The notes under the pieces: model-generated
What the model was told of the DNA's origin: nothing
What the model saw: only the letters and a program-made list of their open reading frames with translations
The model's database searches: none
Made by a program: the position numbers and the translations under genes
In this document: piece by piece, positions 21,916 through 42,438 of the stretch
How the letters are laid out: the number at the start of each line of letters is the position of its first letter
Position numbering within the stretch: position 1 is the stretch's first letter
Assembly (NCBI GenBank): GCA_009733575.1
Contig: ML769558.1
Location: 1 to 64,000 of the forward strand
Length of the DNA: 64,000 nt
Source: Gymnopus androsaceus JB14
Taxonomy: Eukaryota > Basidiomycota > Agaricomycetes > Agaricales > Omphalotaceae
Direction: 5' to 3'

Positions 21916-22122
21916 GGCACTCATTGTCCCCATTACTGGTTCCAGTGGGAGCTCTGGATGTTGTTTACCCTGTTGCTGGCTCCAGTGGGAGCCCCGCAAT
22001 GCTTTATCATTTCATTGCGCGTATGTGCCCCGACTTCACCTGATCCATTCGAAACCCTCCATCCTGTGAACTCAGCTCCCAATATGTCTATTCCCTGTGC
22101 TACGCAACCGTACAAGTGGGAG

Positions 22123-22427
22123 TGTTGGATAAGCACTTAGCCGTTGGTTGTCCGGCCGCTCCGCACAGGGAATAGACATATTGGGAGCTGAGTTCACAGG
22201 ATGGAGGGTTTCGAATGGATCAGGTGAAGTCGGGGCACATACGCGCAATGAAATGATAAAGCATCGCGGGGCTCCCACTGGAGCCAGCAACAGGATAAAC
22301 AACATCCAGAGCTCCATAAAGTATGTAGGTACAATTTGCTAATCAATCGTTCTTTCCCCCCGTCCATCGATGCTCGATTCCCTCCTCTGTCGAGGTTGTA
22401 CCGACTGAGCCCGCTCGTTTCTCAACA
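22123..22427 (+). repeat. Right LTR (305 bp) with inverted internal capture
   Basis: The first ~32 bp and the last ~110 bp match the left LTR. The part at 22163-22315 is a near-exact reverse complement of internal DNA at 21948-22100, both 153 bp, and replaces ~45 bp of LTR sequence. Confidence 0.9.
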
Positions 22428-22544
22428 AGGTAGAATGAAGATCATATTGTGAAATAAGTACACCAGAATCCACTCCCAGTGAACAGTTCACAGCTTGGTC
22501 ACAGGTCACTTTGATCTGTGAGCACTTAGAATTCTGCAGATATC

Positions 22545-22628
22545 CTACAAATGACATGTCTGTAAAATAGACACGCGGAACACATAAATTATATCCGCCG
22601 GTCGTCAGGAACCGTTACGCCTGCGTAA
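22545..22628 (+). repeat. Left terminal inverted repeat of the giant element
   Basis: It begins ctacaaatgacatgtctgta and ends gcctgcgtaa. It matches the complement of 41706-41789 at 82 of 84 positions; the differences are at positions 10 and 47. Confidence 0.95.
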
Positions 22629-22723
22629 CATACATTACATTGTGGTAATACTAAGTAGTGTATATTCCCTGCAATGTACGAATATATAGCAAATACAAAA
22701 GCAAAAGTTCCCTTCAGTGGATC

Positions 22724-23642
22724 TGGGGAGATAGTAATTATTTACTACCTCCCGAGCATTGTTTCCATCTGGGGAGGTAGTGATTATCTACTACCTCCCC
22801 TCTGTGCGCTTTTACTGGGGAGGTAGTAACTATTTACTACCTCCCTTCCTTGAGCTTCATATGCCAACTCGGGAGGTAGTAAATAATTACTACCTCCCGA
22901 GCTTCGTTTGATATCTGGGGAGGTAGTAAATAATTACTGCCTCCCAAGCTTCGTTTGATATCTGGGGAGGTAGTAAATAACTACTACCTCCCGTTCATAT
23001 TGCCAACTCGGGAGGTAGTAAATAATTACTACCTCCCGAGCTTCGTTTGATATATGGGGAAGTAGTAATTATTTACTACCTCCCGAGCTTCGTTTGATAT
23101 CTGGGGAGGTAGTAAATAATTACTACCTCCCGTTCATATTGCCAACTCGGGAGGTAGTAAATAATTACTACCTCCCGTTCATATTGCCAACTCGGGAGGT
23201 AGTAATTATTTACTACCTCCCGAGCTTCGTTTGATATCTGGGGAGGTAGTAAATAACTACTACCTCCCGTTCATATTGCCAACTCGGGAGGTAGTAAATA
23301 ATTACTACCTCCCGAGCTTCGTTTGATATCTGGGGAGGTAGTAAATAACTACTACCTCCCGTTCATATTGCCAACTCGGGAGGTAGTAAATAATTACTAC
23401 CTCCCGAGCTTCGTTTGATATCTGGGGAGGTAGTAATTATTTACTACCTCCCGTTCGTATTGCCAACGCAGGAGGTAGTATTATTTACTACCTCCCGAGC
23501 TTCGTTTGATATCTGGGGAGGTAGTAAATATTTACTACCTCCCGAGCCCCGAGCTTCGTTTTGCCGTTGAAAGTAGTAAATAATTACTACAAACCTCCGT
23601 GTGCTTTTTTTGGGGAGGTAGTAATTATTTACTACCTCCCCT
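22724..23642. repeat. Left subterminal hairpin array (~20 units)
   Basis: Each ~28-bp unit is an inverted repeat with arms gggaggtagtaa / ttactacctccc around a 4-nt core, usually ataa or ttat (the same unit in either orientation). Units are separated by two alternating spacers of ~17-20 bp, gagcttcgtttgatatctgg and gttcatattgccaact. A few units have degenerate arms at the outer and inner edges of the array. The array is probably a transposase-binding region; this is inferred from its position just inside the TIR. Confidence 0.93.
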
Positions 23643-23746
23643 ACTTATTTTGAACTTTTAATACAAGATTTACACAATAATTTAAAGGTTCCCGATATAC
23701 AATTAGCAGCGTACAATTGATTTTACTATATTAACTAAACCCGTAT

Positions 23747-24236
23747 TCACATCGAAATAGCCCTAAGAAGAACGCGTCGAACGCGTCTCAAAATCTCCTG
23801 TCGCGTTCCGTTGAACGTGAATTTTTCGCGATGGCGCTTGCCACCTGAGATAATTGGGTTAAAAAACGAAACCCAAAATGAAAACACTTACAAGTCAAAC
23901 AAGCTCGTTTTGGTCTATCGAGGCAGCGCATCTCTAATAGGATATGCGCGATCGCCTCTGTTGCCCGTTAAGTAAAAAATGAGATAGATATAAGGGAAAC
24001 TCACCGGCGCGATGAGAATTCGGACACGGTATCGGATCGTACCACACCCTAAGTGGATTGTAGCAATCCGTGTTCCACTGCCGTTTACGCTGACAAGGAT
24101 TCACCGTTGTCCCGACCTTCACCATGTAATCCGTCTCGAAAAACGGATACAGGAATCCGGGACCGTCTGCAGCAGATATCGGCCTTGCCTTGAGTACCTC
24201 CAGGCGTCGCTTAAGAAATTCGCGGCTGCGCTTCAT
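23747..24236 (-). CDS. GIY-YIG / T5orf172-like nuclease-domain protein
   Basis: Three exons (24236-24005, 23933-23892, 23844-23747) give an exact 123-aa frame. After a short basic N-terminus the domain reads GFLYPFFETDYMVKVGTTVN, then QRKRQWNTDC and HRAGE/EMRC, and ends in CLTCGKRHREKFTFNG with a Cys pair and HRE. This matches the order seen in small agaricomycete T5orf172 proteins: a GIY-YIG-like GF-Y...KVG strand, the R..QW..DC block, the acidic helix and the C-x2-C...H motif. GIY-YIG enzymes cut DNA. Whether this short version is active is unclear, since the first motif is GFLY rather than GIY. The gene lies just inside the left hairpin array and reads towards the end. Confidence 0.78.
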
Positions 24237-24248
24237 CGAAGGTCGTAA

Positions 24249-24545
24249 GGATCGAGTTGGATTGGAGTTGGAGAGAAATGGGTGAATCGGAAGGGGAAAT
24301 GGAGGTAAAGAACTCGGCAATGGAATAAGTTGAGTGGTGTGGCGTGAATCGACGGTAAGAAAACGGAGCTACCACGATGAATAAGAGGGAAGATCGAGTT
24401 GGAGAGAGAGAAATGGGGAAATCGGAAGGCGAAGGATTCGGCGGTGAAATGAGTTGAGTGGTGTGGCGTGAATTGACGGTATGCAAGGAAAGCTACCGTG
24501 ACGAATAAGATGGAAGGAAGGATCGAGTTGGAGAGTGAAGAATGA
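24249..24545. repeat. Direct repeat of ~130 bp upstream of the GIY-YIG gene
   Basis: Two diverged copies share ggatcgagttggagag, gttgagtggtgtggcgtgaa and gacggta in the same order and a third partial start follows. The repeat occupies what should be the promoter of the minus-strand gene at 23747-24236. Confidence 0.65.
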
Positions 24546-24779
24546 GCAGGAGAGAGATCAGAGGCAGACGACTTTAACTCAAGAGTGCGAGAACATTAAC
24601 TTCATCATCAATCAGTGTCTCAACCATCGATTCCTGGACACACAACGACTCATACTCTCAATTCATTAGTGCGAGAACATCTTTAGTAGTGAAAAAGCCT
24701 CATGCATCACATCATTACGATTCGACGCTTTGACATGTCTATATTAAGCATAAGTATCATTAGTAATGTGAATTGCAGA

Positions 24780-24965
24780 ATTCAGTAGCAGGCAGTAGCA
24801 GGCAGTAAATAAACACTATCTCCCTAAGCTTCATCTAGGGAGGTTAGCAATTAATTACTACCGGAACGTACCTTCACTCCTTGGGAGGTCGTAACTCCGA
24901 GATTTTCGCCTCGGCAAGCTACTACCTGGATTTCATCAGGCAGAGGTAGTAATACAGTGAGCCCT
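24780..24965. repeat. Degenerate hairpin units, left side
   Basis: Scattered remnants such as gggaggttagcaattaatta and gcagaggtagtaata resemble the units at 22724-23642 with poor arm pairing. These look like old copies outside the main array. Confidence 0.5.
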
Positions 24966-25620
24966 CTCAACGATCTCAACTCTCAAAAGGTCGTCCCGTA
25001 GAGCAAAAGCGAAAGTTATGGGCGCTAAACAAAAAACGGAAACCTAAGTCTGGTCACATGGCAATTACCCACTATGCTGCTGTCAAAGCGCTTGAACGCT
25101 GGCACCAACTTTTTTAAACTGGGGCTCAATTGGACCCAGAATCTATCCTATCATAACGAGGCTCAGTTTAAAAAAAGCGGACCCCGGTTTAAAATTCCCG
25201 GGGTTAAACTAAGTTTAATAGATTGGGTCGCCTGTGTAGGCGAGAGCTGTGGGCTTCAAGGACATCCGTCCCGAATGTCAGGGCCATGTGACGCGTCTCG
25301 ATACGACAGCATTCGCGTCTATTCGCGTTTATTGATTCAAACCGACACCACAACAGCCTCAAACAGCGGCCTTTACTTCCTTCTAGTAATTCCTCCAAAT
25401 CCATTCGGTACAGTTTCCAAGCGATTCGACTGGTTGGTTAAATCATTTTAGGCAACCCGTTGCTGATGCTGGCAAAGAGCAAGATCATTTCCATTACATA
25501 TTTCTGTTTCAAATTCATCGCGTCGCAGATCGATATCGCCCACGCCCTCCCAGGCCCTGGCAAATACTACTCTCGAACTAAATTTTCGCCCCTTGCCTTC
25601 ACCTTGCCAGCCAAACCACA
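24966..25620. other. No supported gene
   Basis: A 125-codon plus frame at 25074-25451 has no domain, and it crosses a local inverted repeat (gtttaaaa/ttttaaac type near 25105-25215). I see no splice or domain evidence for a gene. Confidence 0.35.
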
Positions 25621-26111
25621 ATGACCTTAATTGTAACCAACTTCCGGGTACAACCATCCAATCTCCTCGCATTCATTCCACTTACAGCCAGTGAGATCAT
25701 CCAGCTCCTCGCCAGTAACCCCCGTACTGGTCTCCAATGCTTTCTTGATCAGTTCTGCGTTGACCATGGGTTTGAACCGCAGGACCAGATTTTTTTTCTC
25801 ATTTCTGGGATGAAAGCTCTGCGTGAAGTCGACGAGGCTCAGTACCATAACAATAATGATGCTTTGGTCAGCCTCCAGTATGCCCGTCACACGCATGAAA
25901 TCGACCTGGATCATCCGAGCGAAGACGTACAGAAACTACTGTATACCCACTTTGAGGTCTTAGGTGTGTTTTAAATGACAGCATGCCTGCACTGTCCACT
26001 GAAATGCTTAAATATCTAGGTCTATATGGTGACTACCCCCAATGGACTGCCCAAGCGATGTCTGTGGATGTCTATACAGTTCACAATTCCAATGGCCCCA
26101 TGTATAAATAG
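25621..26111 (+). CDS. Hypothetical 144-aa protein of the giant element
   Basis: Exon 1 (25621-25963) and exon 2 (26020-26111) are joined by a 56-nt intron with GTGTGT donor and CTAG acceptor, and the joined frame ends in PMYK. The protein is mixed alpha/beta-like, mildly acidic (EDVQKL, HEIDLDHPSED), with no transmembrane segment or known motif. It is transcribed rightwards, convergent with the long minus-strand gene that ends at 26193. I do not recognise a family. Confidence 0.6.
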
Positions 26112-26192
26112 TCGCACTCAACTAGTAGGGCGGCCCTTGTACAATCTTTATACCACGTTGTATCGTAAGAACATCAATAAATATAAAGATAA

Positions 26193-29100
26193 CTACTTCT
26201 CCTTCCCCATACTCTTGTCATTGTCCGATGTTTTATTTTGCACTTTGCGTCTCGGCTTAGAGTCTTTCATCGCCTCCTTCTCTTCTTTCCGCTGTTGCTT
26301 CTCCTGCCGTTTCCTCTCCGATTCCGCCTTCTCTGCTAATTTTGCCTCCCACTCCTGCTGGCCCCGTTTCGCTTCTTCCATGATCGCTTCCAATTCCTCT
26401 CCCACCTTTCGCTCGTGCTCCTCTTCATCTCTCGCTGCCTTGGTGGCTGCCTGCTTCTCCCTCTCCTCAATCTCTGCTAATCTTTGCGTCTGTCGTTCGA
26501 GCATAATCCTCAAACGCTTGCTCTCCGGAATAAAAACTGTAAATTCTCCCGTATCAGCCGCCATCGTGTAGCACCAAATATTGTCTAAATTCCAAAGGGT
26601 TTCTGATTTTATCTGCGTCAAGACTAGTTCCCGTACACGAGGATGAACTCTCTGGGATCGCCAGTCTTCTGTTTGCAACTTCGTTGGCGACCACAGCCGA
26701 CCCGTTTTAAAAAGGTAAAAATCAAGCAGTGAGTTCTCAATCTGGCACCCACATGTCAATAAACCTCCCGCCAGCGAAACAACTCTCGCGCTGTCGGTTT
26801 CATACGGTGTTCCTGTCAGACTCCACTCTCTGGGAGATGCTGTGAGATCGTTTTGCACCTTCGCAACGCTTCGATTCATACTGTGATGAAGACATCGCAC
26901 GATCCCGGTATCGGTGGTGAGGATGTGCAGTGTCAACTCCGGAGCGACGTTTCCACATTCTGGGACAAAACCAGGCACCGACCGCAAAACGTTTCGAATA
27001 CGAATTGGAATGACATAGTTCTTGTGGTGAAATTTTTTCCAAGCCTCGATCGCAATACGAGCTTTTTCTTTGCATTCAATTGGAGTTTAACTCGCTAATC
27101 TTATGATGATACGAAACACTCACTTTCCAGTCCTTCTTCCTTGCTTTGTTCAACGTATTTGAGAAATTGGGATCCTTTTTTCGTGCCTCCAGCGTTGCCT
27201 CCTGTATCGTCATCTTCGTCTACTTTTGCAAATTTAACATCGCCTTGAACAATTCCGGAGCCTGCTTCTTTCTCCCCCTCATCATCCCTCTTGACCTCAT
27301 CCATCCGGATATCATCAACATGGGCCTTCTTCGAAGCTTCATCTGTTTCCTCTCCCTCGCCGTCACCCTTGGCTCGGTGGACTCACTGTCGCCCTTGGCT
27401 CATCCATCCGGATATCATCAACATGGGCCTTCTTCGAAGCTTCATCTGTTTCCTCTCCCTCGCCGTCGCCCTTGGGTTCGGCGGACTCACTGTCGTTCTG
27501 GATATCATCGGCCCTGAGCTTGTGTGAAGTCCCGTTTATCTCGATGTTGATCTGGGTGCCATCAGCCTTGAGCTTCTTTGACGCTCCGTCCACGTCCAAT
27601 CCTTCAGTCTCTTTTCGCTTGCCTAAACAATGATTCGAGCAATAAATAATAATACTGATAAAATATTTCTTACCGCTGCTAATCCTGGAGCTCTCTATGT
27701 CAAAATTTACTGGCGAGTGTGGTGCGTGAAATGAATATACAGGCAAATCATTTTCTGCGACGAAACGTTCAAAGTCTGTTTAATTTATTTATTAAGTGTT
27801 TGAAAAGACGCAGTGCTCACATACCGTTAACTGGAACCGGTCTACCGTTCTCCCCAAAACGGTAACTGAGCTGCGGTGACGTGGGGGTGGCCCAATAGCG
27901 CGGACCTTCCTCTTTGTCCTTTCGAGGCAAGCTGAAGTTAACCGGACCGCCGTTCTGGTTGAGGAGAAGTCCAGGGCTTCCTGCAGGAGCTTCGCCCGAT
28001 GCAGAGCGGCTGTCTGCCAGTCGGTGGGACCACCCCGTCAACATAGTTCTGCAATCAGGGCTCAGATTAGCAATGAGACGGGCGCGAATCCAGGCCATGC
28101 GCCTCTCCTTGACATACTGAGAACTCGGGGCAACATTGTTATACGGCTGATTCCAATTATAGTGTAAACCCTCCTCTACTGCTTCCTGGCTCCCTCCCAC
28201 GCTAGCTGCTTGGGTATGCCCACTCGTGGACGTCGAGTGCAGAACGGAAGACAAGAAGTCAGCTGCAGCGGTTGGTTGCGGATTGTGGCGAGTAGACTGA
28301 CTGTCGAGACACGATTGCTGGAAGTCTTCGTATTCATCAGAGAAATGTATTCCTAATGATGAACGTAAACAAACTTACAGCTAAACGCCTCCCTACCCTC
28401 AGAAGAGGTCATCACTTGTCCCTGAGGGGTTTCCGGTATTTCTGTCGATCGGGGTACTCAGAAAGACATTTACAGACAATGTTAAGCAGACTTACCGCCT
28501 TGGTTTACACCTATCTCCGTCTGAAGCTGCGAGGAATTGAACTCGATGCCTTGGGACACTCTGGAAGACTGGTTTTGAGCACAATTATTATCCGCGTTCG
28601 CGTTTGGAACTGGAGGAGTGGGAGATTCCGTGATATCTTGGAGGGGCGACAAAGACACTTTATTCTGTCCCTCAGGAAGATTTTGCGAGAACGCCATAAT
28701 GTCAGGTATAGATGCTGGAGGAGCACTCAGCAACACTATGAGGAACGTTGAACGTTGAATGGACTTACCACCTATTTTCACAGCTGTTTCCGCGGGTTTA
28801 ACTGGCGGAGCAGGAGGGGACACAATAGAGTGCAAACGAGACTCCTGCGCGCCGTGTGCTGGAGGGGCACTCAGTAACACCAGTGCGAATGACATTAAAT
28901 AAACTTACGCTCTTTGACAACTTTCTCCATTCGAGCTGGAGGAGAAAGAGATGCTATATTCGCAGCAATCTCGTCTGTATGTCCAATCTTAGTTACCCAT
29001 TGACGTCGATGCTGAACTTACTCACCGCCAGGATCTGTTAATGGTGAAGATACATCACGAACTAATATGCAGAGGCACAGTCGTCAATCTAAGGATATAA

Positions 29101-29318
29101 TTAAATTCACCGTAGACTTACTTTGCCGCATTTCTGCTTCCAGCCTTGATATTTCCCTTTTCAAGGATACACCATCTTTACGACGCTTATCCTTCAGACC
29201 TTTATATTTTTCCCGCGCGTTTTCTAAAGCCGCTGTGAAGTCCATTAGACAAGCCCGACTGCAACAAAAGCAGTAAATATCTACCGGAGAGCGTAGAGGT
29301 GTCATTCGTCGTGGACAT
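26193..29318 (-). pseudogene. Eleven-exon coiled-coil protein, broken by a tandem duplication
   Basis: By splice sites the exons are 29318-29285, 29232-29122, 29061-29026, 28974-28909, 28858-28769, 28714-28496, 28441-28397, 28352-27825, 27775-27674, 27622-27124 and 27067-26193. All ten introns are phase 1. Without the 103-bp duplication in exon 10 the sum is exactly 834 codons (833 aa); with it the frame shifts and stops. The N-terminus is a coiled coil (LENAREKYKGLKDKRRKDG). The middle is Pro/Ser-rich and acidic. A folded block follows (IAIEAWKKFHHKNYVIP to LLTCGCQIENSLLDFYLF), and the C-terminus is a long charged coiled coil ending in a Lys-rich tail. No known domain is recognised. It could still be functional if the duplication is an assembly error. 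Confidence 0.72.
27307..27512 (-). repeat. 103-bp tandem duplication inside exon 10
   Basis: Two adjacent units start ggatatcatcaacatgggcc at 27307 and 27410. They share ~60 bp almost perfectly and then a similar cttggctcggtggactcact stretch. 103 is not a multiple of three, so the second copy breaks the reading frame of the host gene. Confidence 0.9.
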
Positions 29319-29676
29319 TGTTATGGGTGTGGAAGTAGTAGAAAATAAATCCTTTGGACTTGCAGCAAACACTTACCACTCTCTTACAAAAGTTTCAAAT
29401 GGCGGAGCGTCGAATCGAGATCATCAGTGAAATTAAGATTCAGCTTCGAATCAAGATCAACAATCAAATTTACTAATATTCCTGTTCCGAGCTCCTTAGG
29501 GTAAACGATCCTACCACCTTACTCGAATATGGTCGTGCAAAGGCCCTCGGATGGATTCGAATAGACTTTTTCTTTGGTAGCACGCAAGAGCCACCACCTC
29601 CATCTCACTATCTATAGTGCAACTACAGAGATGGATTGTCACTGAGTAGGTATGGATGTTTGAAAAGATGGAATCC

Positions 29677-30879
29677 TTACATTGTTTCATCCTCTACTTC
29701 ACTGTCTGAATCATCGCTGTCTGAATCTGACTCCCTGTGATCCGGTGATAATCCCACATGGTTTGTCGCTGCGCTGTTAGATGAAATCAGATTATTGTCT
29801 CTTCGAGTCCAGTTTTGGGTACTTACCACAAAGCCATTCGCCTGTAGCTAGTGAGGATAATTTCAAGCCAGTGCGGCATACAGTACTTGCGTCGAAGATC
29901 AACACACTGGGATACTCAGGTAAAGGAGAAGAACTTCATCTTCAACTCCACTAGTATTGCTTCGCATCACCCAGCTGTGCAGGGCAGTTGGGAACTGCCT
30001 CCCTGAGCGATCCGACAAGACGGGCAGACTAACAGGGGGGTTCAAACGGAATCTCCATGTGGACCGGTCACCTAAGAAACGGAAGGGACCTTGGAATTCT
30101 CGCCCTATTCCACCAGAGAGCGCGACCATTCCCTGATGTTTGCCATCTGCACGCTTGTACGCACTCTGCGCATTATCACCAATCGGCTCTCTCTCACTGA
30201 ACGTTGAGAAGGGAAAAATGGAATACGCTTCAGTTCCAGTGACAATATTGAATAACGACGCTAGAAAGAATTCAGCATAGAATGACCGCTCAAAACCACA
30301 ACACCTACATGATTCCTGCTCCAATACCGCATCCAAAATACCTCGAGTCGTTCCACGGATATAGATAAGCGATTTTACGCCTCGGAACCTGTATATGAAA
30401 GATCCAAGTGCGGAACCCTCGGAGATTCGTTGTCTACGGTATGCCCAATCGTCAAGCAAGCGAGCACAACTGGAATCACCAAATTCATCCTCAGAGATGT
30501 AATGGAATCCGTTTTTAATGAGTAATAGGCCCATGAAAATGGATAACTTGTGGTCCACATAGAGTTCCAGAGGAATGACCAAATCTGGTGCCTCCCTCGC
30601 CAAAAAAGCGAGTACCGCATGTCCAGATAGAACAGCACCGCAAAACTCCATGCACACTCGAAAGAACTCGACCGTTTCGTGTGACTCCAAATACGCTGAG
30701 AGGGTGTCCTCTATGGAGTAGGTTCGGTAGAGATAGGCATCGACATACGCGTAAGTTGATTGGGATAGAGACCGAATGCATATCAAGTCGCGTAGTGGGA
30801 GGAAATGGAAGACAGTAGCCACCACTGTTTTTGCGGCTTCGTCGTCCAAGCAGCCATGGCGAAGAAGCAGAAAAAGCAT
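29677..30879 (-). CDS. F-box-like protein with degenerate nucleotidyltransferase-like domain
   Basis: Exon 1 alone (30879-29971) is open and reads on to a stop at 29899. Splicing a 64-nt intron (GTGATG...CAG) to 29906-29827 and then 29773-29677 gives an exact 361-aa frame ending in an acidic Asp/Ser tail, which I prefer. Residues ~20-55 (VFHFLPLRDLICIRSLSQ) look like an F-box. Next comes GAVLSGHAVLAFLAREA...PLELYVDH, which aligns with the SGS..L.F...SDLDLYV block of a basidiomycete nucleotidyltransferase-like family, but the catalytic Asp residues are replaced (PLELYV). Later FFLASLFNIVTGTEAYSIFP matches the conserved end of that family. I infer a non-catalytic binding role. Confidence 0.68.
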
Positions 30880-31069
30880 GAGCCTTAGGTGTGCAAGAAG
30901 GAAAACAGATCAGCGCAATAAAAATCTGGAGCGGACTTGATCATGCGGGATCCGGAAAATATTTATCGAGATTGCATGTGCTGGCGCTCCCGCCCGCCAC
31001 TCTCTGTTTTTTCTTAATTCATAAAATCGAACATCATTTGATAGTAGTAGGTACAAAGTAATACTTGCT

Positions 31070-31786
31070 TCAAAGGCCACGCAATTGGAATCGAAGCTTG
31101 CGGTTCTTGTAAGCCCACTCCAAGTCACCCTCCAAGTGCCGCAACTGCAACTCTTCGATTGCTGAAGTTGTCGCCCTCAATGTGTGCAAAAAGGCCTGGC
31201 TTTCGGCCAGTTGGTCGCTAACCGTGACCCCGGCCACATTGAGAATACCATGATGAACTTTGCGATCGACAAAAGTGTTTATGTCGGAAAACCACTCGAC
31301 AAGTGAATCCAGGAAATGGAATGACTGTCCCGCTGCGAGTGCTTCCACAAAGTGTCCATACAGCAAGTGGACATATTCTCGAAATGTAGACCCACTCCCA
31401 GCCTCTGCGAATTTATTTGCAACGAGAGTCTTCACACGTTTGAGGCGGCTCATATAGAAGCTCAAAGGCTTTTCAGCTCGGGTATATCTCCAAAAGAAAA
31501 AGAATTAAATGAAGGACTGAATGTGAGAGGAAAGCTATCGCACTGCATGTCTAGACCCTTCTTCCTAGGTTTCAACACGACGAGAGGTGGACTTGTGCAG
31601 CGGGACTCTTGCTGAGGAACACGTCGTTGTGCGTTTATGGCGTCCTTGTTTCTGTGAGTAAAGGTGTCACTCAAGTACGCTAAGTAAATTATGATAGCAA
31701 GATTACCGATGATAATGCCGAAGGCTTTTAAGGCGGTTGGCCTCGAGCTTAGCTGCAGCGGAGCGATGTATTCTTGGTCGTGGCAT
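31070..31786 (-). CDS. Basic N-terminal MPRPR-type hypothetical protein (201 aa)
   Basis: Three exons (31786-31707, 31651-31544, 31487-31070) sum to an exact 201-aa frame. The N-terminus MPRPRIHRSAAAKLEANRLK is followed by SLRHYHRNKDAINAQRR, a strongly basic helical segment also found at the start of other agaricomycete hypothetical proteins. This looks DNA-binding, possibly a leucine-zipper-like basic region. The rest is alpha-helical (YVHLLYGHFVEALAAGQSF, TTSAIEELQLRHLEGDLEWA). Function is unknown; a regulator or co-factor of transposition is a guess. Confidence 0.72.
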
Positions 31787-31789
31787 CGG

Positions 31790-32670
31790 GTTAAGGTAAG
31801 TGATACAGATCAATTACCTTTTTCGGGACATCAGTCCTCAGCGAGGAAGACCATTTCTTGAATAACTTCACACCTGTTGCACCATTTTCTAAAAGAAATT
31901 CACGAATGTGGTCGAAAAACTCAGCAGATTGATTTTAGCCCAACGAAGTTTGATTTGAAAAGGTCAAGCGAACTTATATTTCGGAGAATCCAAACCGATG
32001 TTCGTTAATGACTTTAATACTAGTAACATGTATTTACAATCTCATAACGAGAATGTTTGACTGGTATTCAATTGAGACGCATAACTCGAACCATTTTACA
32101 GAATACAACAAAAATACAATTGCATGTTCATCCTCGAGCTCGCTGTTATGTACAATAAACTCAGGTTTTGATACCTGGATGCACGTTACGAGGCCATTAA
32201 CAGCTCATTTAGGCTCGATTAGATACCAATTTTGGCTTGGGATATCCTGAAGCTACTCAAAGCTATTTCCGATGGGTCCGAAGCATATCAAGTAACATCT
32301 ACGCTCATGTCGTCGTCGTTTTGAACAATGAGCTCGCAACAAGCGCCCAACGGACCGCGTTTCCGAAAACTAGCAAATGGGTCCTTGGTCCATGATGTCG
32401 TCAAAGAATGCGATAAGTATGGTGCGGAACGCAAAGCAATTATAATTAAACCGGCCTAGCACCCACCCGAGGATGATTCAGAAACATTCAGACACTCGAG
32501 CTCACTATTTTGTACAATGAGGTCAGGATACTTAGGCAAATGCTTGAATATATACAGTTAGTGCTTCCAGATATGTGAATCCAGCTCCGAATAGTCCGAA
32601 GGATATCCATTCGGAAAAATGGCAAATAAGAGAGCGATCTAAATTCGTATGCATCCTTCGAGCTCGGTAC
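31790..32670. other. Gene-free spacer with short direct repeats
   Basis: No gene is supported. Words such as tcgagctcgctgttatgtac (near 32132) and tcgagctcactattttgtac (near 32498) recur with drift, and a third partial copy lies near 32658. They may be remains of a local segmental duplication. Confidence 0.4.
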
Positions 32671-32674
32671 GTAA

Positions 32675-33552
32675 TTAATCGCGCCATCCACACCGTGCAA
32701 GATCATCTTCAGCATTCCCATCCAAAGTTCCAAGCAATGCCGCGAACTGTATAGTATCAGTCTTAGACCACCATACCAGCAATTCGCCATCCTGGGCCAG
32801 AACCTGGATTACCGTAGCAAAACCGAACGTCGTAAGAGTGTTATGTGAAGCGATGAATGCTTCTCGGACAGCTGTGGGACTGTATAGGATGGTGGGAGCG
32901 ACTATTGCAGAATTCTTCACATAATAGAAGTCTCGATGATGATATTCGGGGGCACTCCCTTGGCAGACATGAGTTCAATACAGGAGATAATCGCGCGCAA
33001 TTCATCTACCTTGTTTAATTCGGACATTAATCGACACCACATTAGCCCGAGAGAATTCATGCACCCGTTTGATATATGACTGCATAGTTTCGCTTTTTCT
33101 AGGTATGCCTATGGCTGCCGACAGAAGACTGAGCGTTCGAGCAAGAACCCTGGCATAATATTGGACAGTATATTTCTTTGACCCAGTCAAAGCTGCCTCT
33201 TGCATCAATCCTAAATTCGCGCGAGTTGAATTTCCCAAGCGGCAAATAGGTTTGTGGTCGCCCCAGGCCGCAACTTGGCATTGTTTGGACTGGGGAATGA
33301 CATGTTATCCTTGAACATAACACGACGGAATAAAAAAAGCATGGGCTCACGCAGTAAACAGATACTTTGCAACCAAGGCAACGTTTCAAGCGTTTGACCG
33401 GGAATAGTTGTTTACAGAATCCACAAGCCTGTGACGAAATCAGTACGGTTGAATCAAAACTAGGGAAGCAGGAAACTTACATTTCGTTGTTCGAGTGTGA
33501 ACAGAGCTTCATTGACCGAAGGATTTAGTTGAGAGCGAGGATTGTTCGACAT
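32675..33552 (-). CDS. MYND-type zinc finger protein
   Basis: Exons 33552-33481, 33428-33351 and 33289-33065 join in phase and give CGFCKQLFPVKRLKRCLGC, then VYCSKQCQVAAWGDHKPIC, a perfect C-x2-C, C-x2-C, C-x3-C, H-x3-C MYND pattern. MYND fingers mediate protein-protein contacts. A further exon from 33009 (VDELRAIISCIELMSAKG) is joined by a 55-nt intron. The last block (APTILYSPTAVREAFIASHN to LARCGWRD, stop at 32675) is in a different frame from 33009 and I found no convincing intron, so either a splice site was missed or a frameshift exists near 32960. Gene identity is secure; the 3' half is not. Confidence 0.72.
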
Positions 33553-33877
33553 GAGAGTTGCAAAGAGAAGAATTTGATTCTTTTTTCACTGCGACACGTG
33601 AGAAACTATCTATTGAGTGATATGAGATGAGAGCCGGAGGCGTTGTACGGATTTAGATCACCGAACTTCCTTCCTTCCTTCCAGCCTTGCTGAGAGAAAT
33701 ATCATATGTATTTAATCTGACGTTTTTCCGATATCAATATAGAACCTTTTGCCTGGATTGTCCCGCGGATGGATGACACGATAAGTACTTTCGGATGGCA
33801 CTGAATTTGATTTACAAAGCAATATTCATTTGATGCGATCATGCGTTTGATACGATCATGTAATGTAGATAGGGACC

Positions 33878-35310
33878 CTAATTCGCTGATTGTTCTAATT
33901 GGGCCATAAGTGAAGCCCTTTCCACGTCTAGTCGTGCTTTCGCTTCGATGTCTTTGCGATATTCGGCCAATTCCCTTTCCAGCTCGATCTGTTTTTTCTG
34001 AGAGTCTACCAATTGGGCTTGGGTGTTGAGCAGGTCAGCACTGAGCTGTGCGGCTTCCTGAACACGGGCAAGCTTTAACCCATGGAATGTTGCTTTCGCA
34101 GCTTTGTGCATAGTCTCCGCCTGCTCCGGCCCTTCCGTCAGTAGTCGAGGGGAGGCATAATGAACGAAGCCACCAGATACATTGGGATGATGAGCAGCCA
34201 GATAGAGCCAACAACCGGTTTGATGACTGATTTCTTCGCACTGCGTGTAACAAGTGAACAAGGAGAGAGTATTAATATAATATTAGATACTTACTCTTCG
34301 AACCATATCGCTTATTTTTCGGTTATATGTCTGGGTCGAGCGACCCAAGCTAGACTCAGCGTCAGGTAACGGATGCGATCTGTGTGGCTCTAAAAGCAAA
34401 ATTAAAGGAAATTGAGTTTAAAAAATGTTTTAACATAAATTCAATCATACCCCAGTCTTGTCCTCCTTTACCAGCGCCACAGACACGTCCAAACAAAGGT
34501 TTGCTGTCACTAGCACGAATGCGGTCAGGTCTAGAGGGTGTAACCAGAGGACTGGATGATGGCAATGATTCAGGTCCGAACGAAAATGGTAGCATATTCT
34601 GGAGAAATGTCAGTATATAGGTCGCTAGTAAGAAAGCTCAGAACCTGATTGAATGAATACAATTGGGGATGAGCGAGAGGATCACCATGCATCGCCATTG
34701 CGGTTGGAGAAGAGAAATCAGAAAAGCCATGAGCAAAGGGCGTCGAGGGACTTGGCTGAGCAGCAGGCAGACCCCCACTCGGAGCTACCGCTTCCTGCAG
34801 CTGGAAATGCGACGGCATGCCAGTGGCATGCTCGAGAGCTACCTGTGGTTGAGAAACAGGCTGGCTCTCACTCTGAGTCACTGCTTCCTGCAGTTGGAAA
34901 TACGACGGCATGCCAGTGGCATTATCGAGAACTAATTGAGGAAAGATTGGCTGAGAACTGCTGCTGCCAGATGGAGCCGGAGCTGCGACGCTTGCGGTAC
35001 GTGGCTCAGGTAAAGGCACTGGCCCGGGGTGATGAGGCGCGTTCTTGAGCGATTCATGGTCTTGTTGTTTTTTCTACAGAAGAGTAAGTCGAAGAAGCAG
35101 ATCCAAAGAAAGAATTGCAAGAATATATACCCATTTTTTATAGGCGGCGCTGTGCTGACACTCGATCGTACCTCGCCGAGGCCGTGTGGGGCATTTTGTG
35201 CAGTAACGTGGTCCCCCAGCTACTTTTGCTGGTGGTTGTGCAGCTCGTTTAGCCGGGGATTTTCGTGGAGAGGTGGAGTTTCTCTGAGACTTCCTAGGAG
35301 AGCTAGTCAT
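33878..35310 (-). CDS. Cys-rich N-terminal, coiled-coil C-terminal protein (404 aa)
   Basis: Five exons (35310-35131, 35073-34645, 34598-34451, 34389-34295, 34240-33878) sum to exactly 405 codons. The N-terminus is Lys/Arg/Ser-Pro rich (SPRKSQRNSTSPRKSPAKR) and then CTKCPTRPRRGTIECQHS gives a possible zinc knuckle. The middle has two near-identical Gln/Ser-Pro repeats (ATGMPSYFQLQEAV, ATGMPSHFQLQEAV). The C-terminal ~70 residues (AAQLSADLLNTQAQLVDSQ onward) form a coiled coil. It is divergent from the transposase gene with an 88-bp gap, so the two are likely co-expressed, and it may be an accessory DNA-binding factor. That role is inferred. Confidence 0.72.
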
Positions 35311-35398
35311 GGAAGAGAAAAAGAAAGGACCAAAATGCAATACCCCACTTATATAATATAAGCGATTTACCAGGCCGACAACGCGCTCAGTCTCCTTC
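35311..35398. promoter_or_regulatory. Shared divergent promoter of the transposase and the Cys-rich gene
   Basis: Only 88 bp separate the start codons at 35310 (minus) and 35399 (plus). The gap contains an AT-rich core (ttatataatataag, 35350-35363) that could serve both directions. No binding site is recognised. Confidence 0.55.
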
Positions 35399-38300
35399 AT
35401 GAATTCTCGCAGAAAACATGCATCTGTTTCACCCCCACCCAGTTTACGTCGAGCTCCCGTTGAAGAGGATGGTTGGACTCCATTACGATCTGGAACAGAG
35501 GTAGTTAGTCCTACCAAGAAGAAAACTGCCCGGCGCACACGACAGCGGAGATCGGATACGCGTCAATCCCGTACTGGGCCAGCACTGCTCGGACAATCTG
35601 CTCCTGCAACATCACTTGGAACTTCAGTAGCGTGGCCGGCTCAAATGCCTCGCCCTGCAGAGGCTTCGGCAGTGCTTGTTGAGGAAGTATTGCCATTGAA
35701 TACCGACCAAGTGATGGACGATCCTTGGCAGGAGCAAAGTGATGAGCGGTACATGGGTATAGTCGAAGATGTCGATTACACGGAGGGAACAGCGGTGAAC
35801 AGTTTTGAGCAGTATGTGGACGCGGTGCTGACGCTGATGGTCGGATTCGTCCACCTCAGCCACAACCTATTTGCCGTACAAGGTTGGTCAAGAGATAAAG
35901 GCGAGGGACAGGTATAGTGTTCAAATCTCTTCAATTCTTGAGTACAATTATTGAAAATTATCACAGATGCAATGGTTTCATTTTGATGCAACACGGAAAA
36001 AACTAGGAACGGGTCCAACAGTATGCGCTTGCCCTAATTGTGACTTGGACTGTTTCCATAAGAGGTTCTTTTCATTGTATGAGACGAGATTATACCCTGC
36101 TAGTGACGATGGTATGCCTAATATAGATGCCAAAATGGGGTACTGATAAATATACCTAGAACAACGTCCGATACCCAAAGCAATCTTGTTTTCGAAAGAG
36201 CGTTTCGGGGATAGTGGTGATGCAACTCACCGCTTTTCAGTTGCCCCGCTGGAGAGAGCAACTGGGATTTCAACGCGTGTAATGGTCCAGCATTTTGGGT
36301 CAGATAAAGGCGATGGAGAATGGAAATGTGTCAAAGACAGTTCGCAATTCTGTGTGCATATAAACGCAGCTAGGAAGCTAATGAAGCAGGTCTCGGTGTC
36401 GGAGGATAGTGACGATGACCCAGTAGAGGCAAGTGATGAGAACGTAGGGCTTGACATCTGTGTGTGCTTTGCTGCGATATTTGTTGTTGGTGCAAGTCTG
36501 ATTATCGTATTAGCATCAAGGAGGCTGACAAGTTACCAGACAAGAGAGCAATTTCTCACCTAGCGATACTTCCACCCCACTGGGCGATGCTTCCAAGCGA
36601 CCTGGCTCTGTACAGTCGACCACTCCCTATGCGAACACCGCCCAATCTTATTAAATTGACCAAAGATGCTTCCTGCAGATGTGTCGATGGCGAACGGACG
36701 TTCTACAACCCGGATCTAGCCGTCGAGGTCAAAAAGTGTACAGTTTACACTTTGATTGGAGCATTCCCTGTAGAAATCGAGACCCAGAAGTGCCCGCGTT
36801 GTCCTTCGGTGCATAAGCGGCGCATTGGACCAGAGCCGCGAGCTCTAGGCTTGTTTAACTACAACAACTGGAGGCTATTCAGCCACGAGCTTCTCGATGA
36901 TTACACTTGTTCTTTCACCTCATCGGAAACCCCATTCGAGTCTTGGGTTCACCAAGTTGACCGCAGATATGCAGCCACAGAAAATCCGATACGCTTTTTA
37001 GGGTCAGATACGTTCCGACTGATATGGTTTGCATACGCGAGGCTGATGAAGTTGGAGGGTGATAAGCAGTGCACGAGATGTGGGGTATATCCAAAAAATG
37101 TCATTTGGGATGGAGTATCGATAGCGTTTGCACGAAAGCACGTTAAGATGGATCTGGAGCCACCCACGTTCATTCCCTCCAATGCTTCCTCCCGGAGTAG
37201 TCCCAAAGCACCAGCAAAGCAAGAGTGGATCCAGGAGCCGCGTTTACGACGACAGCTACGGGCATGGCTGAGCAGTGGGGGGCTGAGACCATTGATCAAG
37301 GGGGAGAATGCGGCAAAGGAAGAGGTATTACGTGCGAGATTGCAAAGCCTGGATATCTTCACGGAGGTGGAGGAGGGTCTGAAAAAGATCGACTTGAATC
37401 TTGCAAGGATATTCAACAGAGAATTTGGTATGACTACCGTCTCTGAGAAGAACGAATGGAAGCCCGCTCGTCAATACTTGCAGCTGTTTGAGTTGGTGAG
37501 TCTAACAACTAAATGGCTGAAGAAGAAAACTAACCATATAAGCCAGATATGTGCGGATGAGTCCACAATGCAAGCATTGAATCGAATATCAATAGAGTCG
37601 TTGAAGGACTTTGTCAATAATTCCTCACGCGAGAATGGTCAGCGAATGACTGCCATTCCGAGCATTTACCATGTACTCGAAAGGGAATACTGGGCCAACC
37701 GTTCATACAGAGAGGATGTGATAGGATTATGTAGGTGGATGTTGCAACGAGGCGCTGATACGTTGGCGCGAGTTTTGAGTGGAAACCGGGAGACTCTACC
37801 AGAGTGTGATGTCGAGGAGAAAGATTGGGAAAGAGTGAGTACTTCCAATGCTATTGAACTGAATACTGATACCTGTGTCGCCAGACTGGATGTTGCTACG
37901 CGATGCCTCAGATTCGGCAACGGCCTCGGTATCCCAATCTGAAGTACGACGGAAAGGCTGATGTTAATAAAGAGCAAGCGAACTGTAGGAAATATTACGA
38001 GACCTACTCCCAGAAGCGCCAAACCGGTGGTATTATGGCGTGCTGGTGCACACACAGCATTTGTTACGGTTTTCATATCATACCAGTTGGCGAGGGAAGG
38101 AACGATGTATTTTCAGCGTTAATAACGCGCTGGCCTAAAGCACCTGAACGCGTGGTCTACGACTTCGCATGCGCTCTGGGACCATACTGCTGGGCACGCG
38201 AACCAGATTTTTTTGCAGATACGCAGTTTGTCATTGACGGGTTTCACGCAGCTGGGCACACCAAATGCTCGAAAGCGGCGTTCTTGAAAACATACTCTGA

Positions 38301-38490
38301 AGTTGATTCGTCTCTGAACAGTATCAATACCAGTGCTGCCGAGTGTGGTAACAGCGGCCTCACTAGAATTAGGAAGCCGGTCAGCTATATGACCCAAGAG
38401 CATGCGATTTTATATTCTTGGGTGTTTATTTCGGTATGGAACCGATGTCAACTACGGAAGCTGGAGGGGCGAAAGGACAGGTTAGGATAA
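35399..38490 (+). CDS. KDZ-family transposase with cysteine clusters (944 aa)
   Basis: Six exons (35399-35911, 35967-36111, 36160-36443, 36497-37495, 37547-37834, 37885-38490) sum to exactly 945 codons with no internal stop. The N-terminus is basic. Cysteine clusters typical of KDZ transposases follow: CACPNCDLDC with nearby His, CVDGERTFYNPD, CPRCPSVHKRR, and CTRCGVYPKN. The C-terminal catalytic part reads TGCCYAMPQIRQRPRYPNL, GGIMACWCTHSICYGFH, ERVVYDFACALGPYCWAREP, FVIDGFHAAGHTKCS and INTSAAECGNSGLTRIRKPV. Asp in YDFAC and Glu in AECGN fit the integrase-fold acidic residues; the first Asp is not obvious and this subfamily seems to use a WCTHS motif there. It would excise and insert the element using its ends. 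Confidence 0.92.
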
Positions 38491-39174
38491 CTACGTTGTA
38501 TAGTAAAGTGTTAGACGAACATCTAATGCATAAATAAGTGGCAATTCCAACCGCTAAAACCGCTACCCACATCCTACTGTTCAAAAAACACAAAGGTGTT
38601 GAACACCGTGGTGTTGTGGTGAGAAGAGAGCGGAGAGCACGTTGATCGACCACCGGTCCGGCTCAAGACGTCTCTGCTGGCGCCTAATTTCCGATCGTGC
38701 GATCGCGATCGAAAATTCTCGACGGGATCTGATTTGCGTTATTTACCAAAGTACATAGCAAGAGAGGCAGTAAATAGTCACGAAGGAAAGGTAGTAGTAG
38801 TACCCTTCGGAGAACTGGGGTAGTGGTGAAAACTATCTGTCAAAGTAGGATCAAACGGAGGTGGTAGATAATTACTACCTCCCAACTTACTGGAAAGGGA
38901 GGTAATATTTGTTTACTAACCGTTATTGTACAATTGAAATCGAGGGAGTAACTATTTACCACCTTCAAGAATGGAAGCAGAAAATATTTACCAGCTCACC
39001 AAAATCGTACGTCGGATTGCTTACGCTGTTCTGCATTCAATAACTATATAAGAGAGTAAATAAATACCACTCCGGATGGAAAGGAAGTAGTAAATATATA
39101 CTACCTTGCCTTTAGTCAATAGAAGAATAGTAATTATTGACTAGAACGTAGTAAATAGCTACTACGATTATCAT
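38491..39174. repeat. Degenerate hairpin units, right side inner edge
   Basis: From about 38770 scattered units such as ggtggtagataattactacctccc-like inverted repeats occur with decayed arms. There is no gene. The stretch grades into the coiled-coil gene at 39175 and the regular array beyond. Confidence 0.55.
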
Positions 39175-39735
39175 TCAAAGGGAAACTCCCCGCGCCTTGG
39201 ACTCTTCCTCCCGTTCCTGCTCCTCATTTAACTCCTGTTCTTCCTTCAATTCCTGCTCCTCCTTCAGCTCCTGTTCCTCCTTACGCTCCCGGCGGTTCCA
39301 GCGCTCGATTTCCTTCCGCTTGATCACCCTGAGCTTTTCATTTGCACGGGCCCGGGCCACGATACGCAAATTTTCTCTGACCTCCAGAGTTATGGCCTTG
39401 TGATGTCGCCTTTCGTATTCTGTAACGAGTTCTTTCCTGTGCTTTCAAGAATAAATGTAGTCATTGAGGAACAAAAAAAAAACTGACATAATGGACTCCT
39501 CGATGGGAGCACGCTCCAAGTCCAAAAGGGACCTCTGGGAATCACGGACGTCAATACACCATTGAATAAAAGCCTCCTTTCTGGCTTCGTCCTCGTCGCA
39601 ATCAATGCTGTCCAGAATAAACTTTCGCTCCTCTGGACCTGTGATGTGCAGATTGCCGACATGAAAAGGATCGGAATTCGAAGCGCGTTTGGCAGTGAGC
39701 TGATGAGCTAAAGCTCGTGCAACGTCGGTGGGCAT
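39175..39735 (-). CDS. Charged coiled-coil protein (169 aa)
   Basis: Exons 39735-39488 and 39436-39175 are joined by a 51-nt intron with donor GTCAGT and acceptor CACAG, giving an exact 169-aa frame. The N-terminal half is helical and acidic (FILDSIDCDEDEARKEAF). The C-terminal half is a long Arg/Lys/Glu helix ending in a short repeat (EEQELKEEQELKEEQEL). No domain is known. It is the gene nearest the right end and lies between two hairpin zones. Confidence 0.68.
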
Positions 39736-39804
39736 ACTGAATGGGAGAGAATAAGAATGAGGGGGAAAAGGGAGGACCCGATTTGATGACCCACGTGGGT
39801 ATGT

Positions 39805-41600
39805 GCGCAAGGTAGGTAGTAAATAACTACTACCTCTCAAAGTGTCAAGTGACGAGAGGTAGTAAATAATTACTCCAGATGGAGCGCATGGAGGGGAGGT
39901 AGTAATTATTTGCTACCTCCCACAGCATCATGGGGAGAGACAGTAACGTAGCCAAGGAAGGAACGTAGTAAATATTTACTACCTTTCAGATGGAACGCAT
40001 GGAGGGGAAGTAGCAAATAATTACTATTTCCTCAGTCAAAGGCAAGTAAGTAGTTTTTAATTACTCCCTCCCTTCATGCGCTTCATCTGGACAGGTAGTA
40101 AATAATTACTACATCTCCAGACGTGGAAGGAAGGTGGTAACTATTTACCACCTTCCCCGGATTGCGCGAGGAGTGATGGGGAGAGGTAGTAAATAATTGC
40201 TACCTCTCCAAAAGTAGCTCAAGGAAGGGAGGTGGTAAATAGTTACCACCTCCCCGGATTGCGCGAGGAGTGACGGGGAGAGGTAGTAATTATTTACTAC
40301 CTCTCCAAAAGTAGCTCAAGGAAGGGAGGTGGTGACTATTTACCACCTCCCCCGGATTGCGCGAGGAGTGACGGGGAGAGGTAGTAATTATTTACTACCT
40401 CTCCAAAAGTAGCTCAAGGAAGGGAGGTGGTGACTATTTACCACCTCCCCCGGATTGCGCGAGGAGTGACGGGAGAGGTAGTAATTATTTACTACCTCTC
40501 CAAAAGTAGCTCAAGGAAGGGAGGTGGTAACTATTTACCACCTCCCCGGATTGCGCGAGGAGTGACGGGAGAGGTAGTAATTATTTACTACCTCTCCAAA
40601 AGTAGCTCAAGGAAGGGAGGTGGTAACTATTTACCACCTCCCCGGATTGCGCGAGGAGTGACGGGGAGAGGTAGTAATTATTTACTACCTCTCCAAAAGT
40701 AGCTCAAGGAAGGGAGGTGGTAGCTATTTACCACCTTCCCCGGATTGCGCGAGGAGTGATGGGGAGAGGTAGTAAATAATTGCTACCTCTCCAAAAGTAG
40801 CTCAAGGAAGGGAGATGGTAACTATTTACCACCTCCCCGGATTGCGCGAGGAGTGACGGGGAGAGGTAGTAATTATTTACTACCTCTCCAAAAGTAGCTC
40901 AAGGAAGGGAGGGGGTAACTATTTACCACCTCCCCCGGATTGCGCGAGGAGTGACGGGGAGAGGTAGTAATTATTTACTACCTCTCCAAAAGTAGCTCAA
41001 GGAAGGGAGGTGGTAACTATTTACCACCTTCCCCGGATTGCGCGAGGAGTGATGGGGAGAGGTAGTAAATAATTGCTACCTCTCCAAAAGTAGCTCAAGG
41101 AAGGGAGATGGTAACTATTTACCACCTCCCCGGATTGCGCGAGGAGTGACGGGGAGAGGTAGTAATTATTTACTACCTCTCCAAAAGTAGCTCAAGGAAG
41201 GGAGGTGGTGACTATTTACCACCTCCCCCGGATTGCGCGAGGAGTGACGGGGAGAGGTAGTAAATAATTGCTACCTCTCCAAAAGTAGCTCAAGGAAGGG
41301 AGGTGGTAACTATTTACCACCTCCCCGGATAAGCTCATCGAAGGGAGGTAGTAATTATTTACTGCTTCCCGAGCATAATAAATAATTACTAGTCATCCTT
41401 GAAGGGAGGTAGTAATTATTTACTTACTACCTAAGAGTGACGGGACAATAATTACTACCTCTCCCAGGGAGGGAAGGTAGTAACTATTTACTACTACCTC
41501 ACGCCCAGATGGGATGGAACACATGGTGGGAGGTAGTAATTAATTACTACCTCCCAGACAAAGCGACGTAGTAACAGAGTAGTAGGTCATAGTATTTATT
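39805..41600. repeat. Right subterminal hairpin array
   Basis: The outer and inner edges have irregular units. The core (about 40157-41330) is a tandem array of ~97-bp units, about 12 copies, each with two different hairpins: gagaggtagtaa/ttactacctctc with a ttat core, and gggaggtggtaa/ttaccacctccc with a ctat core. Spacers are aaaagtagctcaaggaa and ggattgcgcgaggagtgacg. Hairpin stems resemble those of the left array, but the spacers do not. Confidence 0.93.
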
Positions 41601-41705
41601 TACTACCATACACGGTTGAAGAAATTTGATTGTAGTGGATATGCGCTCAGTAGAAAATATCCACTACTATTAGCTATCAGGCATGACTCAAGTAACCTTA
41701 GGTCT

Positions 41706-41789
41706 TTACGCAGGCGTAACGGTTCCTGACGACCGGCGGATACAATTTATGTGTTCCGCGTGTCTATTTTACAGACATGACATTTGTAG
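41706..41789 (-). repeat. Right terminal inverted repeat of the giant element
   Basis: Complement of the left 84-bp repeat with two substitutions. Its outer 9 bp (catttgtag) also pair with the left end, so the inverted repeat reaches at least to 41789. Confidence 0.95.
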
Positions 41790-42438
41790 CATAGGCCGCC
41801 TTTGCTATGCCTCCTTTGATAGACTTATTCCGTGTAAGTGCTTCATCTATATTATTTCATTTATAATTTACTGACTCTTATTATTTTCTTGCGACCGCCT
41901 AATCTATAATAATTACTACGTGCTGACAGTGCTCATCGTGACCACTCTCGTCCCCTGTGAGTACGCGTACGTGCGAAACTTTTTTTGTATCTGCCCTGCT
42001 CGCGTTTTCGAAAAGGTACCTTTTTATTTGGCTTTGTCCACTGGTATTGGATCACAACTCGAAGCTGTTGTCAGATCTGCCACGAAGACGCGTCATTCCC
42101 TTGGACCATGCCGTGTAATAAACCTTCCTTCTCTTGTGACACGGCCGACTTCAGTCTTTCCTTACTGCAGTAAGGTGAATCATTAAGCTCCCTTCGCTTA
42201 TCCATTTATTTGGAAGGTAAATCTTCTGCCGCTTACTTTCAAAGCTGAACGAAAGACGAGGACGAATCATTGAGCTCCCTCGCTCACCTACTGTTTTTCG
42301 GCGAAGGAAAATCTTGCGATTCGACAAACCACTGTTGGCAAGTCCAACCCTCACAGAGGTATAAATGAGTATCGACATTTGTACTACCAACGCAACAAAC
42401 CCCGCTCACAACATCACTATCAGTCTACTACCAGCCAC
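41790..42438. other. Flanking host DNA, no gene seen
   Basis: Short frames only. It includes the likely promoter region of the decayed reductase that starts at 42439. Confidence 0.4.

What the first reader, a model, noticed from the sequence alone, without database searches (positions are those of the whole stretch)
22545..41789. A 19.2-kb KDZ transposon with matched ends, hairpin arrays and eight passenger genes
The two 84-bp ends match at 82 positions, a full-length 944-aa KDZ transposase with an open frame lies inside, and eight further genes are confined to the element. KDZ transposons are known to be large, but this passenger set and the paired hairpin arrays are not a described arrangement that I recognise. 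It could be a cargo-carrying giant transposon comparable in concept to fungal Starships but with a different transposase.
Basis: partly seen in the sequence, partly recalled or inferred. Interest (0 to 1): 0.93.

Follow-up and report, generated by a model that had tools for sequence, protein, structure and literature searches.

The report
Giant multi-gene KDZ transposon in mushroom
This is a real 19.3-kb jumping gene in a mushroom that carries its own transposase plus eight other genes, several of which look like working parts of the element rather than random passengers, so it is a striking new variety of an already known kind of large fungal transposon.

Summary
The element is real. Its ends lie slightly further out than claimed: 22537-41797 (19,261 bp). 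It has a 944-aa CxC4-KDZ transposase with an open frame (58 of 58 family-invariant residues kept), eight other predicted genes, and palindrome arrays inside both ends. Two relatives in the genome (C241, C176) carry, between them, homologues of all nine genes. Codon changes indicate purifying selection on the transposase, a T5orf172 (GIY-YIG-like) gene and a MYND gene, and more weakly on three others. Two genes lie in a recently homogenised stretch (one shows no constraint) and one was not measured. Several genes therefore look like the element's own set rather than Starship-like host cargo. The left flank shares an 8-bp duplication (GAATTCTG) with the tip of contig C108, not with the right flank in this window; joined, these flanks give the uninterrupted repeat present at C136 and C393. 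So a second copy of the right end exists, and this contig joins flanks of two insertions (assembly collapse or recombination). A 16.6-kb element with the same ends (C173) has a different interior. Giant KDZ elements and accessory genes in KDZ are known; this gene set with palindrome arrays was not found described. New variant of a known kind.

The parts
22529..22536 (.). GAATTCTG, left copy of the 8-bp target-site duplication; its partner is on contig C108, not in the window
22537..22628 (+). left terminal inverted repeat (L-type end, CAGATATCCTAC...)
22725..23640 (.). left subterminal array of 28-bp palindromes (GGGAGGTAGTAA-centre-TTACTACCTCCC), 20 units at <=6 mismatches
23750..24236 (-). 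G1: T5orf172 (GIY-YIG superfamily) protein, 3 exons, about 130 aa
   Evidence: Pfam T5orf172 8.9e-10 (typed model with one extra glycine); dN/dS 0.16-0.22 against C241/C176, 0.13-0.63 in ten rows
25621..26105 (+). G9: small gene of unknown function (main exon 25621-25965; the rest approximate)
   Evidence: dN/dS 0.53
26196..29245 (-). G2: long multi-exon gene, unknown function, charged coiled C-terminus (could be two genes)
   Evidence: dN/dS 0.46, no stop, on six located exons; a cruder merged model gave 5 stops
29902..30867 (-). G3: orphan protein; predicted structure unreliable (pLDDT 35); the three hits are two from G. androsaceus and one unnamed row
31073..31786 (-). G4: three-exon gene starting MPRPRI..., unknown function; no sign of selection, stops in both relatives
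   Evidence: dN/dS 1.28-1.45 from few changes; 2 stops each in C241 and C176
32678..33552 (-). G5: MYND zinc-finger protein
   Evidence: Pfam zf-MYND 1.7e-10; dN/dS 0.18-0.21
33881..35310 (-). G6: ~404-aa protein of unknown function with coiled C-terminus
   Evidence: (dN/dS 0.42-0.43; 2 stops in C241, none in C176)
35399..38490 (+). CxC4-KDZ transposase, 944 aa, 6 exons
39178..39735 (-). G8: two-exon, charged coiled protein with a relative on C176; selection not measured
   Evidence: tblastx 7e-75
38857..41555 (.). right subterminal palindrome array, 38 units at <=6 mismatches, partly in ~97-bp tandem units; it surrounds G8
41706..41797 (-). right terminal inverted repeat (R-type end, GGCCTATGCTAC... 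read inwards)
41798..41852 (.). flank of a different insertion: 55 bp identical to C158:3595-3649, where no element interrupts them

Best explanation
A giant autonomous DNA transposon of the KDZ superfamily (CxC4 lineage) in Gymnopus androsaceus. A DDE-type transposase recognises the two slightly different TIR ends, probably helped by the palindrome arrays beside them as multi-copy binding sites, and integrates with an 8-bp target-site duplication (duplication and empty sites shown; recognition, binding and cut-and-paste inferred). Several of the other genes are resident accessory genes of the element. T5orf172 and MYND are the best candidates for transposition or regulation helpers (inferred). 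The same transposase probably also moves relatives that kept the ends but lost or replaced the interior, such as C173 (inferred). Exchange between copies swaps end modules and homogenises segments (inferred from discordant divergence).
Against: The window's own two flanks show no duplication. G4 shows no purifying selection and has stops in both relatives; G3 and G4 are too recently homogenised to test; G8 has no dN/dS. G1 is broken or only partly matched in several relatives (stops or short matches in C173, C453, C245, C652, C268, C335, C224). The C241 transposase has 2 stops under the window's exon model, with 201 codons missing. Palindromes are not at every end: a later scan found none in the C3 end stretch, the left 10 kb of C173, C641, or second stretches of C455 and C169, and one in C165; C108 ends too early to tell. 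No expression data; binding and helper roles untested. Foldseek alone gave nothing at E <= 0.001.
Confidence: 0.77

Rival explanations
1. True cargo element: the interior genes are passengers picked up from the host and exchanged freely, as in Starships, with no role in movement.
For: C173 has the same ends and T5orf172 module but an otherwise unrelated interior by tblastx, including an ORF weakly like a TET/JBP dioxygenase (E 0.019, under the cut-off). G3 has only three hits, two in this species and one unnamed. G4 shows no constraint. Fragments of the G4 region match C584, C194 and C385, not examined further.
Against: G2, G5, G6 and G9 persist between copies at dS 0.26-0.48 with dN/dS 0.18-0.53. 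A G6 relative in Coprinellus micaceus is listed on a contig of the same length as a CxC4 transposase there.
Confidence: 0.22
2. The 19-kb unit as assembled is chimeric: two or more near-identical copies collapsed, so left part, interior and right part may come from different copies. (Compatible with the best explanation.)
For: Left flank and C108 flank belong to one insertion, the right flank to another. C108 ends 102 bp inside an identical end. Protein P0122, matching the window copy by eye except at modelled introns, is listed on a contig of 148,096 bp, not C176's 143,605.
Against: Interior order largely agrees with C241 and, with rearrangement, C176; no N in the window. Ectopic recombination between two true copies would give the same pattern.
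Confidence: 0.55
3. The palindrome arrays are ordinary minisatellites that expanded near the ends and have no function.
For: The right array has regular ~97-bp tandem units, typical of slippage or unequal exchange. Some family stretches have no unit.
Against: Units in 16 of 16 family stretches and 0 of 16 controls. Two-sided complementary changes exceed all 1000 column shuffles (15 versus mean 5.0, max 11 in the window at <=6 mismatches; 39 versus mean 15.7, max 30 elsewhere), though shared ancestry and choice by likeness can inflate this, and two of five measures were not clearly above shuffles.
Confidence: 0.33

Closest known systems
KDZ (Kyakuja-Dileera-Zisupton) transposons of fungi
   Same: KDZ transposase with a cysteine cluster, TIRs, 8-bp duplication as for Zisupton and Cryptococcus KDZ1 (PMC12730594, PMC12810828, passages seen)
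   Different: KDZ1-3 are about 9-11 kb with CxC1 domains; here 19.3 kb, CxC4, nine genes and palindrome arrays
Giant KDZ elements of algae (Ectocarpus up to 30.3 kb; 31.7 kb active in Chlamydomonas)
   Same: giant size, extra genes (PMC12477816, passages seen)
   Different: gene content could not be compared here; those passages do not describe this gene set or paired palindrome arrays
Starship giant transposons
   Same: large fungal element with many genes
   Different: tyrosine recombinase captain, 42-606 kb in the basidiomycete Tremella (PMC13066641, passages seen); here a KDZ transposase and a largely persistent gene set
CACTA/EnSpm elements with subterminal repeats, e.g. the 20.5-kb soybean element (PMC2613891, search listing only)
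   Same: large element with repeats just inside the TIRs (recalled)
   Different: different superfamily and duplication length (recalled)

Membership tests
KDZ superfamily | KDZ transposase domain with associated cysteine cluster | tested here: met
   CxC4 9.7e-42; KDZ 1.5e-5 on exon 6 alone, 1.4 bits under the gathering score; 195 homologues, of which several listed rows carry both Pfam domains
KDZ superfamily | RNase H-like transposase fold | tested here: met
KDZ superfamily | DDE catalytic triad | tested here: inconclusive
   five invariant acidic residues kept, among them D802, D827, E862; not superposed on a known active site
KDZ superfamily (Zisupton/Dileera type) | 8-bp target-site duplication | tested here: met
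   GAATTCTG between window left and C108, 8 of 8; C173 7 of 8; the window's own flank pair does not match
KDZ superfamily | terminal inverted repeats (Zisupton; Kyakuja lacks them) | tested here: met
Starship | tyrosine recombinase captain gene | tested here: not met
   no such domain in six-frame Pfam scans or in nine window gene pieces; six-frame scans missed spliced domains, so modest sensitivity
TET/JBP-carrying transposons | TET/JBP dioxygenase gene inside the element | tested here: not met
   none for the window element (divergent types could be missed); a sub-threshold match in C173 only

The most novel reading that the evidence does not exclude
A KDZ lineage that has become a small self-contained genome: a co-evolving set of about nine genes, in which a GIY-YIG-like nuclease and palindrome arrays at the ends take part in excision, end recognition or copying, and in which the ends with their nuclease module are exchanged between elements with different interiors.
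Probability: 0.23. Interest if true: 0.8.

Novelty: new variant of a known kind. Interest (0 to 1): 0.56.

Why it matters
It gives a testable case of a eukaryotic DNA transposon with many genes, several of whose conservation argues for roles in its own life cycle. It offers defined ends, an 8-bp duplication, an apparently intact transposase and matched palindrome arrays, so the question of what giant transposons carry extra genes for can be tested directly. It also warns that contigs through such elements can join flanks of two insertions.

Tried and rejected
Full Starship analogy: set aside for a KDZ transposase and a persistent gene set. Window right flank as the true partner of the left: rejected, no duplication. 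A left partner for the right flank: the pattern search found no exact junction; of its one-mismatch places with CAGATATC, the stretch on C20 gave no TIR match and C220 was not examined; C158's upstream DNA is unique; unresolved. Rfam: no match at gathering scores for 22000-42500. Structure of G3: pLDDT 35, unusable. The PF10544 search found 4 other loci but none of the known G1 copies, so it says nothing about G1. PDB sequence searches gave no useful relatives. Foldseek gave nothing at E <= 0.001; families absent from the VIA list are not excluded. G3 and G6 searches reach few species (in one search only the 7989 candidates sharing most words were scored), so spread of the gene set outside Gymnopus is essentially untested. 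Searches for print on KDZ with accessory genes, GIY-YIG, T5orf172 or subterminal palindromes: with capped listings; only open-licence papers are held; Iyer et al. 2014 is not held, recalled.

Full report
1. Observation. The two ends match as stated: 84 bp at 98%, and the inverted pair extends to 22541-22628 and 41706-41793 at 97%. The query found 16 places in the own assembly of 83.27 Mb, two of them the window's own ends. Reading outward across the copies held gives two sharp boundary types, CAGATATC (L) and GGCCTATG (R; GGCCTATC on C241), after which flanks differ, except within two groups that share flanks (C229/C245/C453 and C173-right/C335/C224). The element is therefore 22537-41797, 19,261 bp.

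2. Host. The C241 relatives of the transposase (P0007) and of G3 (P0123) are recorded as Gymnopus androsaceus JB14 on a contig of 104,511 bp, the length of C241. The window is taken to come from that strain (Agaricales, Omphalotaceae).

3. Insertion history. The 8 bp left of the element are GAATTCTG; the 8 bp right of it are GCCTTTGC (3 of 8 alike), so the window shows no duplication. Contig C108 ends 102 bp inside an end identical to the window's right end, and the 8 bp outside it are GAATTCTG. The window-left and C108 flanks, joined with one GAATTCTG, align to about C136:107429-107610, and C393 shows the same uninterrupted junction. These are paralogous empty sites in a dispersed repeat with more than 20 listed copies. 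The simplest reading is one insertion with an 8-bp duplication, whose right flank the window contig lacks. The window's right flank begins with 55 bp identical to C158, where no element interrupts them, and then diverges; this suggests a second insertion but is not proved. C173 carries an element of about 16.6 kb with flanks TCAATAAT and TCAAGAAT (7 of 8); C335 and C224, which share its right flank, read TCAATAAT.

5. Are the passengers part of the element? A DNA search with the interior finds relatives on C241 (inverted, same order, with insertions) and on C176 (rearranged), mostly at 74-90% identity and 65-66% in the G1 part. It did not list the window itself, so its counts are lower bounds. 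It also lists fragments elsewhere; those of the G4 region on C584, C194 and C385 I did not examine. G2 and G9 are matched on C241 only, G8 on C176 only. dN/dS: transposase 0.26 (C176) and 0.37 (C241), KDZ exon 0.07; G5 0.18-0.21, G6 0.42-0.43, G2 0.46, G9 0.53, G1 0.16-0.22. In ten rows from nine loci G1's first two exons give 0.13-0.63; five rows (four loci: C652, C245, C268, C241) have stops there, and exon 3 has stops in C453, C173 and C245 while C335 and C224 match only 47 residues of exon 1. G1 without stop is thus shown for the window and C176; its constraint is that of the lineage, not of every copy. Against the reading: G4 is above 1 with two stops in each relative; C241 has stops in the transposase (2) and G6 (2) under the window's exon model. 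The stretch 29.65-32.15 kb is 95.6-99.6% like C241 per 250 bp, while nearby windows are mostly at 75-91%. That suggests recent conversion or exchange and makes G3 and G4 hard to test. G1 is far more diverged (dS 1.5-1.9) than the transposase (0.25-0.27) between the same elements, so the end module has its own history. CxC4 was found at only four loci genome-wide (a lower bound), so many ends may depend on few transposases.

6. Palindromes. All 58 units (<=6 mismatches) of the window lie in the element. The genome-wide pattern search gives 141 forward and 132 reverse hits at up to 3 mismatches, against 0 for the reversed control. Sixteen of 16 other family stretches, on 15 contigs, have 1-17 units, and 0 of 16 control stretches have any. 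A later scan of further family stretches found one unit in C165 and none in C3, C641, the left 10 kb of C173, second stretches of C455 and C169, or C108, which ends inside the TIR. So most, not all, ends looked at have them. As single-stranded DNA five chosen units fold at -11 to -14 kcal/mol with z -6 to -9. Two-sided complementary changes exceed column shuffles; three of five measures exceeded all 500 shuffles, one was reached by 25 and one by 393. Units were chosen for likeness to a palindrome and share ancestry, so this is suggestive only.

7. Variants. C173 shares ends and the G1 module (inverted) but nothing else found by tblastx at 1e-6; its first 10 kb gave no Pfam match in six frames (the remaining 6.9 kb was not scanned), and one ORF resembles TET/JBP at E 0.019, below the cut-off. 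CpG: in the G1 module 48 of 74 window CpGs are TG/CA in C173 and 2 the other way, but only 7 of 69 in C335; in the transposase region 51 of 231 versus 49 for C176, and 90 of 190 versus 22 for C241. Observed/expected CpG is 0.92 in the element, 0.96 in the C176 locus and 0.44-0.51 in C173. The window copy is thus among the least decayed of those compared.

8. Verdict. A giant KDZ transposon with a largely persistent gene set: the kind is known (PMC12477816, PMC12810828, PMC12730594, PMC7641404; passages or one section seen), this composition was not found described in the searches named. Helper roles of G1 and G5 and binding to the palindromes are inference. One hint beyond Gymnopus: the Coprinellus micaceus G6 relative (31% over 37% of the query) and a CxC4 transposase are listed on contigs of the same length, 324,984 bp.

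Noticed in passing
22000-22263: Long inverted repeat: 116-nt arms, 95% complementary, 32 nt apart, just outside the element.
   Followed up: no
22424-22536: The left flank is part of a dispersed repeat with more than 20 listed copies in the genome; the element inserted into one.
   Followed up: yes
C176:132298-143605 (same contig, outside the window): A second, rearranged relative whose transposase shows no stop against the window's exon model; it runs into the contig end.
   Followed up: partly
41798-41852 and C158:3595-3649: 55 bp identical right up to the element boundary, then unrelated sequence; origin unexplained.
   Followed up: partly
32127-32366: A 240-bp stretch inside the element also matches five other contigs at 78-81% identity.
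   Followed up: no
L042:5760-6371 (C173): ORF weakly like a TET/JBP dioxygenase inside an element with the same ends and no transposase found.
   Followed up: partly
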